Shown: piece after piece, positions 23,226 to 29,398 of the stretch
How the letters are laid out: each line of letters begins with the position of its first letter
Position numbering within the stretch: the stretch's first letter is position 1
Assembly: GCA_001796335.1 (NCBI GenBank)
Contig: MGMF01000001.1
Span: 124,001-188,000 of the forward strand
Length of the DNA stretch: 64,000 bases
Origin: Chloroflexi bacterium GWB2_49_20
Lineage (GTDB): Bacteria > Chloroflexota > Anaerolineae > Anaerolineales > Villigracilaceae
Reading direction: 5' to 3'
Notes under the pieces: model-generated
Seen by the model: the letters and a program-made list of their open reading frames with translations, nothing else
The model's database searches: none
What the model was told of the DNA's origin: nothing
Translations under genes and position numbers: made by a program

Positions 23226-23258
23226 AAAAAGGCTTCCTGTTAAAGGAGGCCCTTTTTT
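23226..23258. terminator. Terminator between convergent operons
   Basis: GGCTTCC (23231-23237) / GGAGGCC (23245-23251), A-run before and CTTTTTT after. Works for the cytochrome pair on the plus strand and could serve herA on the minus strand. Confidence 0.85.
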
Positions 23259-23283: not shown

Positions 23284-24978
23284 TTAATAACCCAACTCTT
23301 CAATGATCTTACCTTCTCGTTTTCCGATGGAACCTCCCAGTAATTCTCTCCAAAACTGGTCATCATACCGGCGTGAGCTGACCGGCAAAGGCATGGGCAC
23401 GCCCCACCCCAACAGCAATACTTCCTCTTTTTGCTGCAGGTGCGCCAGCATGCCGCGCAGCGCCTCGCGGCCTGCCAACCCGGAAAGGACGGCATGGATA
23501 TCATCTTCATCTCCCAGCCAACCCGAGATACGCGTACCCAGCTGTGACATGACCTCATCATGGATCTGTGAAGGCCGCTGGTCGATGATCAACAGGGTGA
23601 CGTAGTATTTGCGCATTTCACGCGCGATGGTGGCAAAGGTGGTTTGCCCTGCCATCTCCCGGTTGAGCAGCTTATGGGCCTCCTCAATAACGATCACCAG
23701 TGGACGAGGTTCTTCCTTGCCATTTCGGAAATCATTGGTCATTATCTCCCAGCGTTCACGGATCTTGCGTGTCAGCAGGTTGGATACCAACAGGTAATCC
23801 AGGTCGGTTTCGTAATTCCCAAACGAGAGCACGATATGCCTGCCAGCCTGCAGGGATTTGATGATCTCACTGACACTATCCGCGGCTGGCTTCTCAACAA
23901 TATATGGCTTGTCGAATAAACGGCGAAGCTTGTCATGCAGCCCTTCAGCCGCCATGACATTCACTCCATTTTCATCCGCCCAGGCTGCCACACTGTCTGG
24001 GTGTGGTTTTTTCTTTAGTTTGCCCTTTTCATCTTCATATTCAACTTCATCCCGGTTCATGCTCTTAAACCGTCTGAACCAATCTTTGCCAAAACTGGTC
24101 AGCAGCGCATGCAGTGTTGTGGGGGTGGTCTCGCGCAGGTTCAACTCACGCGTCAACAGTTCCACATCAATAGGGGTGATATCCTGCATGGCAATTTCCA
24201 AATTAAAGTCAGGGGCCTGGCCGCGGATCAGTGCGCCCCCTCCCAGCCCAACCACCTGCACACGGGAGGCAAATTTGGTTTTTAGTCCTACCACGCGCAG
24301 GCTGGTATCCGTGGCGGTATCGTCATAAGCATATTCATTATGCATGTCAAAGACCAGCACACAGGCTTTTTTGTAATTAATTAAACCAGCCAGGATGATG
24401 CGTGTCAGAAAGGATTTCCCCGTTCCTGTGGCGCCAAACACACCTGAAGAACGCTGCACCAGTTTGTCCAGGTTGATGCACACCGGATGGTGCTGTTCAC
24501 GCGTGTAGCCTACCACAAAGTTTCCCTTCTCTACCGGGTCTCCAAAGATCTCGGCGATGTCGCCTTCCCCTGCCAGGTGCACCTCGGCATGATGCCGGGG
24601 GACGGTTTTGACCGGGCGCGGATGAGGTATCTGATCACCCATTTTTTCCACCCAGGCCGGGTATTCGGGTGAAGCCGGATCCGGTCCTCGTTCCAGCATC
24701 AGGGCTGGCAGGACTTCCAGGTTGGTGAACAAGGTTTGTCCATGCAAAGCTTTGGCCAGGGCAGGCGGCAGCCGAGTCTCGGATTGTTCATCAGCAAAAC
24801 GCGGGTCTGTGGCTCCAAGTTGCAGGTCGGTGACCAGCCCGTAAAATTGCAAGTCACCGCTGGCAATGGTCACAAATGCGCCTTCCTGGATCTCCTGGGA
24901 GGGGACGGTCAGGCGCACGCGGAAATTTTCCTTCAACCCACCACCAACGATGTAACCGATGGATTTATTTTCGTTCAT
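23284..24978 (-). CDS. herA: HerA-type DNA translocase ATPase
   Basis: Hexameric FtsK/HerA-family ATPase that would move DNA for the NurA nuclease. The 564-residue protein has an N-terminal HAS-barrel (about residues 5-60, with IGYIVGGGLKENF and FYGLVTDLQLG), Walker A GATGTGKS (about 183-190), the VFDMHNEYAY block, Walker B LVIVIEEAHKLLN (about 430) and the C-terminal arginine/glutamine motif TLLIIDQRPSQI. It is the last gene of a four-gene operon and overlaps the methyltransferase by 4 bases (ATGA). The usual bacterial HerA context is herA-nurA alone; here two other genes lie between. Confidence 0.92.
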   Translation of the reverse strand: MNENKSIGYIVGGGLKENFRVRLTVPSQEIQEGAFVTIASGDLQFYGLVTDLQLGATDPRFADEQSETRLPPALAKALHGQTLFTNLEVLPALMLERGPDPASPEYPAWVEKMGDQIPHPRPVKTVPRHHAEVHLAGEGDIAEIFGDPVEKGNFVVGYTREQHHPVCINLDKLVQRSSGVFGATGTGKSFLTRIILAGLINYKKACVLVFDMHNEYAYDDTATDTSLRVVGLKTKFASRVQVVGLGGGALIRGQAPDFNLEIAMQDITPIDVELLTRELNLRETTPTTLHALLTSFGKDWFRRFKSMNRDEVEYEDEKGKLKKKPHPDSVAAWADENGVNVMAAEGLHDKLRRLFDKPYIVEKPAADSVSEIIKSLQAGRHIVLSFGNYETDLDYLLVSNLLTRKIRERWEIMTNDFRNGKEEPRPLVIVIEEAHKLLNREMAGQTTFATIAREMRKYYVTLLIIDQRPSQIHDEVMSQLGTRISGWLGDEDDIHAVLSGLAGREALRGMLAHLQQKEEVLLLGWGVPMPLPVSSRRYDDQFWRELLGGSIGKREGKIIEELGY

Positions 24979-25883
24979 CTATCTTTCTCCTCAGAGCTCA
25001 GGTTTGCTCCAAAACCCTGTATGCGTTTTTCGGCTAGGTTGACATATTTTTCAGCGATTTCATAACCAACATAATGTCGTCCGGTTTGGATGGCTGCCAG
25101 GGCGGTCTGCCCGGAACCCATGAATGGATCCAGGATCACTTCCCCGGCGAAGGTATACAGCTCGATCAGGCGCCGCGGCAATTCCAGCGGGAAGGGAGCC
25201 GGGTGCCCGATCTTGCGCGCAGATTCGGTTGGAAGAGTCCATACCGATTTGGTAAACTCGAGAAAATCATCCCGCGTAATCGTGCTGGCACGTACCGCAG
25301 GGTTGGGACGCTTGAATGTGTCCTTGCAGAAAATCAGGATGTATTCATGCACATCCCGCAGGGTGGAATTGGATGCGGATTTCCAACTGCCCCAGGCAGT
25401 GGATGGGCTGGCACTGCTGCCCTTGTTCCAGATGATCTCACCGCGCATTAGAAAGCCCAATTTCAATAGGCTCGAGATGAGCATTGCATGCAGGGGAATA
25501 TAGGGCTTGCGCCCCAGGTTGGCGACATTGATGCACAGCCGCCCGCCCGGCACTAGCACCCTCTGCACCTGCAACCAGACACGCCCCAGGAATGCCAGGT
25601 ATTCGTCCAGGGTCTGATCCTGGTCATAATCCTTGCCCACATTATAAGGTGGCGAAGTGACCATCAGGTGAACGCTGTTTTCTGGTAGTTCGCTCATATC
25701 CTCGGCTGTTTTACAATAGATCCGGTCAAGTGCATTGCCCGGAATGAAATTTTCAACGTAATCCACTTTCTGGTCCTGAACCACTCCGTGGTAGATCTTG
25801 CCCGCATAAAATGCACTGGCATCATGTCCAACGCGGCCGGGGGATCCAAACGAAGAGGTTTGTGTTTTTTTTCGCCTGTTCAT
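24975..25883 (-). CDS. DNA methyltransferase, beta-class, probably N4-cytosine
   Basis: S-adenosylmethionine-dependent DNA base methylase (302 residues from ATG 25883; GTG 25886 also open). Motif IV is TSPPYNVG (about residue 84) and precedes motif I DPFMGSGQTALAA (about residue 262), the order of beta-class enzymes; SPPY rather than DPPY suggests N4-cytosine, although N6-adenine is not excluded. Other blocks: EIIWNKGSSASPSTAWGSW and VGYEIAEKYVNLAEKRI. The N-terminal 30 residues are basic. No restriction endonuclease or specificity subunit is adjacent; instead the neighbours are NurA and HerA, so target choice may reside in the enzyme itself. Confidence 0.9.
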   Translation of the reverse strand: MNRRKKTQTSSFGSPGRVGHDASAFYAGKIYHGVVQDQKVDYVENFIPGNALDRIYCKTAEDMSELPENSVHLMVTSPPYNVGKDYDQDQTLDEYLAFLGRVWLQVQRVLVPGGRLCINVANLGRKPYIPLHAMLISSLLKLGFLMRGEIIWNKGSSASPSTAWGSWKSASNSTLRDVHEYILIFCKDTFKRPNPAVRASTITRDDFLEFTKSVWTLPTESARKIGHPAPFPLELPRRLIELYTFAGEVILDPFMGSGQTALAAIQTGRHYVGYEIAEKYVNLAEKRIQGFGANLSSEEKDR

Positions 25884-26494
25884 CACTTATCCAGAGGGAG
25901 AGCATCCCCCAGTGCGGAAAGTACGGACATAAGGGTGGGGTAATCATCGCGCAAGAGGATGATCAATTCCTGGGCTGCCTGTTCCTGCCATAACAGGTTC
26001 CCTTTGTGCGCATGGGCGGCTCCGGCTTGTTGAATGTGGGCTGCAAGGATCTCCCCAATAGGCAGATCCTTGTTTCTGAGAACATGCCGGAAATAGCCAA
26101 AACTTCCCGCGCCTGTGAATTTGACAAGTTCATCCTCATCACACAGGTTGATGACATCCAGGCTGAGCGGCGGGCGCGGCGGCAGCAAGTGAGAGATCCT
26201 GCCATCCTGCTCCCAACCCACTGTCAGCACCGACATTTCCACCGGAACAATGCGCCTTTCACGGTTATCGCGCATCACTTCCTGGCTGATATTATCTGCA
26301 GTGACCAGTTGTCGTACCAAGCCATCATCATCGATGTGAATATCATGGATCAAGCCATAAACCTGATACCCTGAACTGAGCGGTGCACTTATCAGCGCTC
26401 CCAGCGCCGGTGAGGCAAGCTGGGAAACCGAGCAGCCAGCCACAAACCCTGTTGTGCCGGAACGCAGCAGGTAGCCTATCTGAAGTGGTTTCAT
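25883..26494 (-). CDS. Stand-alone HAS-barrel-like protein of the HerA-NurA operon
   Basis: No named family is obvious, but the first 55 residues resemble the HAS-barrel of the HerA encoded two genes on: both open with IGY(I/L)(V/L), both have a Gly-rich middle, and YGLIHDIHI here matches YGLVTDLQL there. The rest (residues 60-203) is mixed, with a conserved-looking SLDVINLCDEDELVKF and FGYFRHVLRN. I choose ATG 26494, with AAGGAG 5 bases upstream, over ATG 26512. It ends on the methyltransferase start (TGATG). Possible roles: adaptor that lets NurA or the methylase dock on HerA, or part of a mixed ring. Confidence 0.65.
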   Translation of the reverse strand: MKPLQIGYLLRSGTTGFVAGCSVSQLASPALGALISAPLSSGYQVYGLIHDIHIDDDGLVRQLVTADNISQEVMRDNRERRIVPVEMSVLTVGWEQDGRISHLLPPRPPLSLDVINLCDEDELVKFTGAGSFGYFRHVLRNKDLPIGEILAAHIQQAGAAHAHKGNLLWQEQAAQELIILLRDDYPTLMSVLSALGDALPLDK

Positions 26495-26508
26495 TTTCTC
26501 TCCTTCGT

Positions 26509-27678
26509 TCATTTACTGCCTCTACCCGGCAAATCCTTCGTAGCTTGTTTGTTGGAAGGTTCTCCCACCTCTGCCCCTGCCTTGAGCAGCTCCAACATCA
26601 GCATCTGCTCCACTTGTTGTTTTTCCTGGAGTTTCACCACTGCAATTTCATGGGCACGATGCAAAATATAAGGATACGATCTGGCACCCAAAATGCGGCA
26701 CTGCGAGATCAAGGCGGCATGCAGCATATTGAGTTTGGATTCATCTTGGGCCACCCAGGCCGGGATCTCCACCCGCACCAGGTAGGGATGTCCGTCGCTG
26801 CTGGTATTCAGATAAAAAAAGTGCAGTGCCAACCCACCCTTGTAATGCGCCCGTGAGCTGGATTGCAGCCCAAACACCGCAGAACGCGCTCCCGGCGGTA
26901 ATTGTCTGAACAGCCAACGGTCGCTTACTCCCCGCAAGCTGGATTTCTTGCGAATATCCTTGAGATTTTCAACATGCATCTCGGCAATCTCCAGCAGGCG
27001 CACCACCAGGTTGGCTCCTGGTTTATCCACCAGCCCGCCCAGGGTTACATCCCTGTCCTGCAGCCTGCTCAAGACCAGCAGGTGGGTTTCCAGGGTGCGG
27101 CGGTAAGCCTCCAAACTTCCATCCTTGGGACCCCACACCTCCACCGGGCCATCGGTCAGCGCTACAACAGGAGAGGGGTATTTTTCTGCCAGATCGAGTA
27201 GTTTTTGGCGTTCAGCCAGGTCTCTCCCCATCGCGATCAGGTCTTCGCCAAGCAGACCTGTATCAGTGTATAACTCTTCTCCGTATTTAAGATCGCTGAA
27301 AGTGAATATATCAGGCGTCTTGCCAGAGCCAGGTTCGATCACAATGGCGCCGACATTGATCAGGGAAAAGAAAAGTGCGGCGTGTCTGTCCGGGTTGATC
27401 TGCGAGCCATCTGCCGCGATGAGCGTCACCTGGGGAGGCAGGTCTGGCAGCTCAACGGAGGCATTCAGAGCATCGCTGACCGGCAGCGCACAGCGCAGGC
27501 TGGGATCATGTTCACATGCCTGGTCCACCTTATACAGTAGCTCATCCAACCGATTGGCATGTGCCTCCAGAAGACTGCTGGCACGCAAGCGTCTGGCACT
27601 TATTTGCTCATCGCTTTGTTTCGCTCCGGCTGCTATTTCCCTTATCTTCTGAATGACCTGTTGATAATCAATCGTCAT
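26509..27678 (-). CDS. nurA: NurA-domain nuclease
   Basis: Predicted 5'-3' nuclease that works with HerA in DNA end processing. The 389-residue product has a helical N-terminus (residues 1-75), the NurA metal-binding signature LIAADGSQINPDRH (Asp about residue 88), a second acidic block VVALTDGPVEVWG (about 170), and C-terminal LRGVSDRWLF and ARSYPYILHRAHEIAVV, in which the His is the usual last active-site position. First gene of the operon; a promoter with TTGCAT-17-TAGAAT lies about 60 bases upstream. A Gln/Glu-rich tail follows the domain. Confidence 0.88.
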   Translation of the reverse strand: MTIDYQQVIQKIREIAAGAKQSDEQISARRLRASSLLEAHANRLDELLYKVDQACEHDPSLRCALPVSDALNASVELPDLPPQVTLIAADGSQINPDRHAALFFSLINVGAIVIEPGSGKTPDIFTFSDLKYGEELYTDTGLLGEDLIAMGRDLAERQKLLDLAEKYPSPVVALTDGPVEVWGPKDGSLEAYRRTLETHLLVLSRLQDRDVTLGGLVDKPGANLVVRLLEIAEMHVENLKDIRKKSSLRGVSDRWLFRQLPPGARSAVFGLQSSSRAHYKGGLALHFFYLNTSSDGHPYLVRVEIPAWVAQDESKLNMLHAALISQCRILGARSYPYILHRAHEIAVVKLQEKQQVEQMLMLELLKAGAEVGEPSNKQATKDLPGRGSK

Positions 27679-27735
27679 TTATTCGCCCTGTATGGTATAA
27701 GACATTATTTGCCAGCTAGAACATTTGTCTTAGAT

Positions 27736-27764
27736 ATTCTACAAGCAAAGATTGTATAATGCAA
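27736..27764 (-). promoter_or_regulatory. Predicted promoter of the nurA-herA operon
   Basis: Minus strand: -35 TTGCAT (27764-27759), 17-base spacer, -10 TAGAAT (27741-27736), 58 bases before the nurA ATG. No operator-like repeat is obvious around it. Pattern match only. Confidence 0.5.
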
Positions 27765-27924: not shown

Positions 27925-28641
27925 ATGCGTACCAAAATCACACTAACGGCATCCATTGCCATCCTGGCATTGGTATTGAGCGCCTGTGCGCCCAATGTGA
28001 CCGGATCTACAGTAGCTGCCCGTACCATTTCGGTCAATGGCACCGGAACTGTGTACCTGACACCGGATATCGCCTACATCAATATCGGTGTTCACACCGA
28101 AAACCCTGAAGTTGGGAAGGCTGTGGACATGAACAGCCAGAAATCCCAGGCAGTGATGACAGCCATCAAAGCCCTGGGCGTGGAAGCCAAAGATATCCAG
28201 ACCACCAATTTCAGCGTCAACAATTCCATTCAATATGATCCAACTAGCGGCCTGCAGACCGGCACCATCTATATGGTGGATAACACAGTTATTATCACAA
28301 TGCGTGACCTGGCTAAAATGAGTGATATTCTGGATGCATCCATCCAGGCCGGGGCAAACAATATCAACAGTGTTTCATTTGATATCGCGGATAAATCCGA
28401 AGCTGTTCAACAAGCCCGCTTGCTGGCCCTTGAAAACGCCCATAAACTGGCAACCGAACTGACCGACGGAGCGGGCGTTACCCTGGGCGATGTACAAACT
28501 CTTTCATATTATGACTACTCCCCATCCCCATTTTATGGCAAAGGTGGTGAAGGCGTGGATACTGCAGCTTCAAGCGCACCCATCAACCCCGGGCAAATGC
28601 AGTTAACCGTGGATGTAAGTATTATCTACGAGATCAAATAA
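27925..28641 (+). CDS. SIMPL-domain (DUF541) lipoprotein, first copy
   Basis: Surface or periplasmic lipoprotein of unknown biochemical role. The 238-residue protein has lipobox LSAC (Cys about residue 21) and one SIMPL domain: ISVNGTGTVYLTPDIAYINIGV, VDMNSQKSQAVMTAIKALGV (in two parts here), DIQTTNFSV and the closing LTVDVSIIYEIK. GGAGGAACC precedes ATG 27925. The next gene encodes a close paralogue, so the pair arose by tandem duplication. Family members occur in many bacteria as oxidative- or envelope-stress-linked proteins, but no reaction is known. Confidence 0.88.
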   Translation: MRTKITLTASIAILALVLSACAPNVTGSTVAARTISVNGTGTVYLTPDIAYINIGVHTENPEVGKAVDMNSQKSQAVMTAIKALGVEAKDIQTTNFSVNNSIQYDPTSGLQTGTIYMVDNTVIITMRDLAKMSDILDASIQAGANNINSVSFDIADKSEAVQQARLLALENAHKLATELTDGAGVTLGDVQTLSYYDYSPSPFYGKGGEGVDTAASSAPINPGQMQLTVDVSIIYEIK

Positions 28642-28660
28642 GGACTCATTGGAGAAAGCC

Positions 28661-29398
28661 ATGAAAAACAAATTTCTATTCTTGATCAGCGTCCTGGCGA
28701 TCGCCAGTGTATTGAGCGCCTGTGGATCAGGCACAACCCAAACCTTATATCCGCAAATCCGCAGCATGTACATCAATGGTACAGGCACAACTGAAATTAC
28801 TCCGGACATTGCCTACATCAACATCGGTGTACATACCGAAGCTCCCACAGCTGTGGTTGCAGTTTCAATGAATAACACCCGGGCGCAGAAGGTGATGGAT
28901 GCTTTGAAAAAATTTGGTATCCAAAGCAAAGACCTGCGCACCAGTAATTTCAGCATCGCCTCTCTACAGAAAACCAATCCTGAAACCGGAGAGGTAACCG
29001 GAACATACTATGCAGTCGACAATAATATCATTGTGACGGTACGCGACCTCCCCAAACTGGGCAATTTATTGGACAATGCCATCCAGGCAGGTGCAAACAG
29101 CATCAACAATGTCCAGTTCGATGTGGCGGATAACACCGCAGCACTAAAACAAGCCCGTGACAAAGCCATGCAGAATGCCATCCAGCAGTCCCAGGAACTT
29201 GCCGATGCAGCCGGGATCAAACTGGGTGCAATCCAGTTCATCAATTATTCAGAAAGCATTCCAATGTTTGCCGGGAATTCCTACATGGATTATGGCAAGG
29301 GCGGTGGCGGTGGAGTGCGCGCTGACATTTCCGTGCCAGTCAACCCCGGTCAGATGACCATTACAGCAACAGTCACCATCACCTATGCGCTCAAATAA
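28661..29398 (+). CDS. SIMPL-domain (DUF541) lipoprotein, second copy
   Basis: Paralogue of the protein encoded just upstream. From ATG 28661 (GGAGAAAGCC before it) there is a lipobox LSAC, then MYINGTGTTEITPDIAYINIGVH in the same place as in copy one (two consecutive parts), VMDALKKFGIQSKDLRTSNFS and a closing ITATVTITYALK. The Gly-rich loop KGGGGGV near residue 215 is longer than in copy one (KGGEGV). The TTG at 28649 is open but has no good binding site. 19 bases separate the two genes, and a terminator follows. Confidence 0.87.
   Translation: MKNKFLFLISVLAIASVLSACGSGTTQTLYPQIRSMYINGTGTTEITPDIAYINIGVHTEAPTAVVAVSMNNTRAQKVMDALKKFGIQSKDLRTSNFSIASLQKTNPETGEVTGTYYAVDNNIIVTVRDLPKLGNLLDNAIQAGANSINNVQFDVADNTAALKQARDKAMQNAIQQSQELADAAGIKLGAIQFINYSESIPMFAGNSYMDYGKGGGGGVRADISVPVNPGQMTITATVTITYALK

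What the first reader, a model, noticed from the sequence alone, without database searches (positions are those of the whole stretch)
23284..27764. Four-gene operon NurA - stand-alone HAS-barrel protein - DNA methyltransferase - HerA
Gene order and tight packing are seen directly: the genes are co-directional, with a gap of 14 bases or overlaps of 1 and 4 bases, under one predicted promoter. HerA and NurA are a known translocase-nuclease pair; a beta-class methyltransferase and a free HAS-barrel-like subunit between them are not part of the textbook pair. Inference: a self/non-self module in which the methylase marks host DNA and HerA-NurA degrades unmarked DNA, with the HAS-like protein as adaptor or alternative ring subunit. 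It may instead be a housekeeping repair operon of this lineage.
Basis: partly seen in the sequence, partly recalled or inferred. Interest (0 to 1): 0.8.

Follow-up and report, generated by a model that had tools for sequence, protein, structure and literature searches.

The report
Three-part HerA–NurA operon with inserted methylase
A DNA-end-processing machine (motor HerA plus nuclease NurA) in this Chloroflexota bacterium has a conserved, apparently undescribed third partner made of a free copy of HerA's docking domain, and a DNA methylase was later inserted once into its operon in one lineage; this points to a three-part repair complex rather than to a new methylation-based immune system.

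Summary
On the minus strand lie NurA, a stand-alone HAS-barrel protein, a beta-class N4/N6 DNA methylase and HerA, tightly packed.

The interpretation splits in two. NurA–HAS–HerA is an old, vertically inherited Chloroflexota operon. In 301 genomes the free HAS protein and this HerA co-occur in 114; 4 have only HAS and 4 only HerA. The three genes abut in most other classes. Divergences correlate (r 0.89–0.95). In the family the operon keeps one chromosomal neighbourhood (SIMPL genes in 38 of 44 loci). AlphaFold2 (pLDDT 91) matches HerA HAS domains (Z 13.7). I find no published report of this third component in the library searched.

The methylase is a later passenger. It entered the HAS–HerA interval once, in an ancestor of at least six genera. 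It kept its motifs, and 14 of the 15 clade genomes with the HAS gene still have it. That interval also holds many unrelated genes. Relatives of the methylase are orphans or sit beside restriction endonucleases.

Most likely: a three-component HerA–NurA end-processing complex plus a captured orphan methylase. A self/non-self module is not supported for the core, but is not excluded for the one clade.

The parts
26509..27678 (-). NurA nuclease, 389 aa, first gene of the operon
   Evidence: PF09376 E 1.9e-15 over residues 85-348; D90-G91-S92, E156, D253 and others are near-invariant in 84 Chloroflexota NurAs
25883..26494 (-). stand-alone HAS-barrel protein, 203 aa (209 aa if started at 26512)
   Evidence: 19 of 65 homologues hit PF09378, best 3.9e-10; AF2 pLDDT 91; VIA Z 13.7, rmsd 2.0 over 106 residues to a HerA HAS domain (9c1m_M), Z 12.7 to Deinococcus HerA
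24975..25886 (-). beta-class N4-cytosine/N6-adenine DNA methyltransferase, 302-303 aa, orphan (no endonuclease beside it)
   Evidence: PF01555 E 1.2e-45; PADLOC MTase_II PDLC03350 E 1.2e-126; TSPPYN at 77 before DPFMGSG at 253
23284..24978 (-). HerA-type hexameric translocase ATPase, 564 aa
   Evidence: PF01935 E 3.7e-29; GATGTGKS Walker A and IVIEEAH Walker B; best solved-structure match 8wiv, also Sulfolobus HerA 4d2i
27704..27731 (-). weak promoter-like site upstream of NurA
   Evidence: AAGACA-16-AATAAT, 9 of 12 matches, near chance level
23231..23251 (+). terminator-like hairpin in the convergent gap downstream of HerA
   Evidence: 8-pair stem plus T run on the + strand
27925..29398 (+). 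two SIMPL-domain genes, divergent from NurA: the conserved chromosomal neighbour that marks the locus as ancestral
   Evidence: SIMPL homologues divergent from NurA in 38 of 44 family loci; the L122 copy is PF04402

Best explanation
This is the Chloroflexota form of the HerA-NurA DNA-end-processing machine, with a dedicated third component. HerA is the ring-shaped double-strand DNA pump and NurA is the nuclease docked on the crown formed by HerA's own HAS domains (established for relatives). The free HAS-barrel protein most likely binds at that same crown/NurA interface as an adaptor or gate that assembles or regulates the complex (inferred). In one Anaerolineales-type clade an orphan DNA methylase, probably N4-cytosine-type and derived from type II restriction-modification, was inserted once between the HAS and herA genes and has been kept. 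It probably methylates the host genome on its own account, as an orphan maintenance, regulatory or anti-restriction methylase, and merely shares expression with the complex (inferred). Shown here: gene order, homology, fold, co-occurrence, vertical inheritance and single insertion. Inferred: physical complex, role of the HAS protein, role of the methylase.
For: Free HAS and HerA co-occur in 114 of 301 phylum genomes, with 4 HAS-only, 4 HerA-only and 179 neither. Outside the family HAS abuts HerA (gap at most 100 nt) in 25 of 28 same-contig loci and NurA in 27 of 35. Pairwise divergences correlate: HAS/HerA r 0.95, HAS/NurA 0.92. Where herA lies elsewhere (13 genomes, Chloroflexia-type and others) the HAS gene still lies beside NurA in most. 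The HAS fold matches HerA HAS domains. SIMPL genes lie next to NurA in 38 of 44 family loci. Linked methylases form one clade (99/97), as do their HerAs (96/78; 98% of bootstraps). In the clade 14 of 15 genomes with the HAS gene keep the methylase. The same interval holds many unrelated inserts. Papers: the HAS domains of HerA bind NurA, 6 HerA to 2 NurA (PMC9960219, PMC12977600).
Against: No complex has been shown; no co-fold of HAS with NurA or HerA could be run. The co-occurrence p-value ignores shared ancestry. hhalign of the HAS alignment against the HerA alignment gave only 10% probability (E 0.003), although it aligned the expected region. The long retention of the methylase with intact motifs and its ATGA coupling to herA in the window fit functional coupling at least as well as passive linkage. 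HerA-NurA may itself be antiviral in archaea (PMC12977600).
Confidence: 0.7

Rival explanations
1. Self/non-self module: the methylase marks host DNA and HerA-HAS-NurA translocates along and destroys DNA that lacks the mark, with the HAS protein as sensor or adaptor.
For: Methylase gene overlaps herA by ATGA in the window; one insertion kept through at least six genera; two relatives (L107, L116) carry a type II endonuclease and a D12 methylase in the same interval; HerA-type motors serve in anti-phage systems, and Thermococcus HerA-NurA degrades both strands of dsDNA (PMC12977600).
Against: Most lineages have the core without this methylase, so it cannot be what spares host DNA there; fixed, non-island location; other inserts at the site are mostly unrelated to defence; this HerA is far below the anti-phage HerA cut-offs (80.6 against 800 bits, 61.3 against 850).
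Confidence: 0.1
2. Eroded restriction-modification island: the methylase is the surviving half of an R-M system that landed in the operon; the endonuclease was lost and the methylase is kept because remaining sites must be protected, or is drifting.
For: L107 and L116 carry type II endonuclease PDLC03417 plus a D12 methylase beside it; a 54% relative sits next to a ThaI endonuclease beside the same operon in L122; Methanobrevibacter relatives overlap a ~290-aa candidate endonuclease.
Against: Only 2 of 14 linked loci show an endonuclease, and its D12 methylase is a better cognate; all motifs intact and 71-75% identity across genera argue against drift; most relatives elsewhere are orphans.
Confidence: 0.35
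3. Methylation-linked repair module: the methylase, and the UDG-superfamily gene beside it in relatives, act with HerA-NurA on deaminated or mismatched methylated sites.
For: A UDG-like gene (PF03167; hit to Thermus UDG 2d3y, E 2.2e-6) lies between methylase and herA in about six linked loci.
Against: Absent from the window; present in L191 without the methylase; other cargo varies.
Confidence: 0.08

Closest known systems
Bacterial NurA-HerA of Deinococcus/Thermus (7wrx, 7f6d; PMC9960219, PMC5448004)
   Same: NurA then HerA in one operon; [quoted passage not shown] presumed 6:2 end-resection complex
   Different: The published Thermus locus is a nurA-hepA tandem without a third gene; here a free HAS-barrel protein lies between them and co-occurs with HerA across Chloroflexota
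Archaeal HerA-NurA (Sulfolobus 4d2i, Thermococcus 9x1l/9x1m)
   Same: Motor and nuclease pair; the HAS domain is the NurA-binding face
   Different: Archaeal operons pair with mre11-rad50; here an SbcD/Mre11 homologue is elsewhere (contig C22) and a HAS protein is added
SIR2-HerA and HerA-DUF4297 anti-phage systems
   Same: HerA motor; HAS fold match Z about 13
   Different: Different effector; anti-phage HerA models score far below their cut-offs here
TdpAB (8wet, 8wfd)
   Same: HerA-like hexamer whose N-terminal domain matches the HAS model, Z about 11
   Different: From general knowledge it restricts by sensing phosphorothioate DNA; no such genes were looked for here, and its paper is not in the library
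ThaI-type R-M
   Same: A 54% relative of the methylase sits next to a ThaI endonuclease (PF15514) in L122
   Different: No endonuclease in the window; the relative falls outside the linked clade

Membership tests
NurA nuclease | NurA domain with conserved acidic residues | tested here: met
   57.5 bits against 21; D90, E156, D253 invariant in 84 sequences
HerA translocase | DUF87/HerA ATPase core with Walker A and B | tested here: met
   102.8 bits against 23.2; motifs and invariant in alignment A2
HerA translocase | own N-terminal HAS barrel | tested here: inconclusive
   PF09378 at residues 7-66, 16.2 bits, below the 25.2 cut-off
HAS-barrel domain | sequence match to PF09378 | tested here: met
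   met at family level only: window protein alone none; 19 of 65 homologues, best 3.9e-10
HAS-barrel domain | fold of HerA/F1 HAS barrel | tested here: met
   top Foldseek matches are nearly all HerA or HerA-like chains, best 1.1e-5; VIA Z 13.7, then F1-ATPase about 11
HerA-NurA complex | physical hetero-oligomer | not testable with these tools
   no complex prediction available
Beta-class N4/N6 DNA methyltransferase | PF01555 domain; catalytic motif IV before the SAM motif | tested here: met
   156.6 bits against 26.7; TSPPYN 77, DPFMGSG 253
Type II restriction-modification system | cognate endonuclease beside the methylase | tested here: not met
   the neighbours are HAS and HerA, with no insert between them; no endonuclease family among the window families listed by PADLOC (25 of 48 shown)
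Anti-phage HerA (NCBIfam NF042943/NF042944) | score above the equivalog cut-off | tested here: not met
   80.6 against 800 and 61.3 against 850 bits

The most novel reading that the evidence does not exclude
In the methylase-linked clade the three-part HerA-HAS-NurA motor-nuclease reads DNA methylation while threading DNA, with the free HAS protein as sensor, so that methylated self DNA is spared: a methylation-gated translocating restriction system grown out of a repair machine.
Probability: 0.08. Interest if true: 0.85.

Novelty: new variant of a known kind. Interest (0 to 1): 0.5.

Why it matters
HerA–NurA has been studied as a two-protein machine, and one paper states that bacterial examples are confined to a few groups such as Deinococcus-Thermus (PMC9960219). 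Here about 40% of sampled Chloroflexota carry HerA with a matching third gene, a free copy of the very domain by which HerA grips NurA. That makes the assembly question (six HerA, two NurA, and how they are coupled) testable in a new way. It also shows a clear case of an orphan methylase captured by a repair operon, a caution against reading neighbourhood as defence.

Tried and rejected
Sequence searches of the PDB with the HAS protein or its profile found nothing useful. hhalign HAS against HerA gave a low probability, so I relied on the fold and on Pfam hits of homologues. The promoter claim is not clearly above chance. Considered and rejected: that the operon is a recent mobile island (conserved synteny); that the four genes are a fixed unit (the methylase is absent from most loci); that the interval inserts form a defence pattern (they include a DUF6056 membrane protein, a diguanylate cyclase, 23S intervening-sequence proteins and others). 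Methylases also lie just downstream of HerA in L128, L142, L187 and L201; I could not say whether this exceeds chance. No report of the triad was found in the searches of the held library; subscription papers are not covered, and the TdpAB paper is not held.

Full report
OBSERVATION. The window is contig C1:124001-188000 of a 3.37 Mb, 99% complete genome. Its relatives by search are Anaerolineae/Anaerolineales of the Chloroflexota. Pfam identifies NurA, the methylase and HerA above their cut-offs. The 203/209-aa protein has no direct Pfam hit.

THE FREE HAS PROTEIN. I aligned 65 Chloroflexota homologues; 19 of them hit the HAS-barrel family PF09378, best E 3.9e-10. AlphaFold2 gave pLDDT 91 and pTM 0.85. 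Foldseek's best matches are nearly all HerA or HerA-like chains. VIA-align gives Z 13.7, rmsd 2.0 over 106 residues to a HerA HAS domain, 12.7 to Deinococcus HerA, and about 11 to F1-ATPase, whose barrel gives the fold its name. A C-terminal helical part (about residues 150-205) follows the barrel. So it is a genuine stand-alone HAS-barrel protein; it has no ATPase domain.

THE CORE IS OLD AND VERTICAL. Profile searches over the same 301 phylum genomes find the free HAS protein in 118 and this HerA in 118, with 114 in common (shared ancestry inflates the p-value). NurA-family proteins are commoner (187), so HAS presence tracks HerA rather than NurA. Outside the window's family, HAS abuts HerA in 25 of 28 same-contig loci and NurA in 27 of 35. 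In Chloroflexia-type and some other genomes herA is elsewhere while the HAS gene stays beside NurA in most; in others (e.g. G234, G129, G053) HAS–HerA stays and NurA is elsewhere. Divergence matrices correlate at r 0.89-0.95. In the family the operon keeps the same divergent neighbours as in the window, SIMPL genes in 38 of 44 loci, often followed by the 3-hydroxyisobutyrate-dehydrogenase-like gene. Within 150 family genomes the HAS protein is in 125 (77 of 88 high-quality). This is a housekeeping-type locus.

THE METHYLASE IS A LATER INSERT. The same methylase type (E at most 1e-60) is in 44 of 150 family genomes, mostly not in this operon. It lies between HAS and HerA in 14 genomes of six genera (window, g6, g182, g188, g190, g199). 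The linked methylases form one clade (99/97) and their HerAs one clade (96/78, 98% of bootstraps): one insertion, then inheritance. Of 15 clade genomes with the HAS gene only G347 lacks it, and no HerA was found there. G358 and G320 have contig breaks between HAS and the methylase, with the methylase next to HerA; the G368 contig ends just after the methylase. Identity to the window is 71-75%, comparable with the HAS protein (67-74%) and above NurA (52-62%), with SPPY and FxGxG-type motifs intact, so it is probably under selection. SPPY favours N4-cytosine chemistry (general knowledge; not tested).

THE INSERTION SLOT. In this family the HAS–HerA interval is over 300 nt in 37 of 44 loci; in other lineages the median is -1 and 25 of 28 are at most 100 nt. 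Its contents vary: PDDEXK_3 GxxExxY proteins, 23S intervening-sequence proteins, DUF6056, a PAS-GGDEF protein, a UDG-superfamily protein (PF03167, hit to Thermus UDG 2d3y), and in L107 and L116 a type II endonuclease plus a D12 methylase. A tolerant insertion site explains the methylase without functional coupling, though its uninterrupted retention is more than most other cargo shows.

ORIGIN OF THE METHYLASE. Relatives occur in Anaerolineales, Dehalococcoidia, Desulfobacca, Methanosarcinales/ANME and Methanobrevibacter. Methanobrevibacter copies overlap a ~290-aa gene that resembles an endonuclease by eye (PADLOC hit only marginal). Desulfobacca and ANME copies sit among biosynthesis genes as orphans. 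In L122 a 54% relative is paired with a ThaI endonuclease (PF15514, 4.4e-79) about 1.1 kb from NurA, beyond the SIMPL gene. The family therefore probably comes from R-M systems; the window copy has no endonuclease.

MECHANISM. Known relatives: six HerA form a ring whose HAS domains make a crown that binds a NurA dimer (PMC9960219; PMC12977600). Shown here: a free HAS barrel co-inherited with both partners. Inferred (about 50%): it docks at the crown/NurA face as adaptor or gate. An alternative ring subunit is less likely because it lacks the ATPase. Some authors now suggest that archaeal HerA–NurA may be antiviral (PMC12977600), so a defence role for the core itself is open; a role for methylation in it is not supported.

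VERDICT. Observation confirmed; interpretation partly supported. The most interesting element is the conserved third component, not the methylase. I found no description of it in the papers searched, with the limit that subscription papers are not held.

Noticed in passing
L040:7284-7910; also L045, L046, L091-L094, L096-L098, L103, L104, L106: A conserved 208-aa gene lies directly beside the unlinked family relatives of the methylase (48-100% identity among loci); no PADLOC hit for the one tested, function unknown.
   Followed up: partly
window 26509-26565 (NurA C-terminus): The NurA C-terminal tail S375-x-K377-x3-K381 is 99-100% conserved in 84 Chloroflexota NurAs, outside the Pfam domain match: a candidate interaction or DNA-contact tail.
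   Followed up: partly
L122:2513-4039: ThaI restriction endonuclease plus a methylase 54% identical to the window's, inserted between the dehydrogenase and SIMPL genes beside the same nurA locus.
   Followed up: yes
L110:5834-6454, L111:4338-4949: UDG-superfamily protein between methylase and herA in related genomes, a divergent relative of Thermus UDG 2d3y.
   Followed up: partly
HAS-HerA interval of L108, L111, L112, L126, L127, L129, L136-L138, L140, L142 and others: GxxExxY PDDEXK_3 and 23S-intervening-sequence proteins recur in the same interval in many genera, as if it were a preferred landing site.
   Followed up: partly
L128, L142, L187, L201 (downstream of HerA): Other methylases, with a type II endonuclease in L201, lie 0.4-2 kb downstream of HerA; not tested against chance.
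   Followed up: partly
G000:C22:102304-103092: SbcD/Mre11 homologue encoded away from the HerA-NurA operon, unlike archaeal operons.
   Followed up: no
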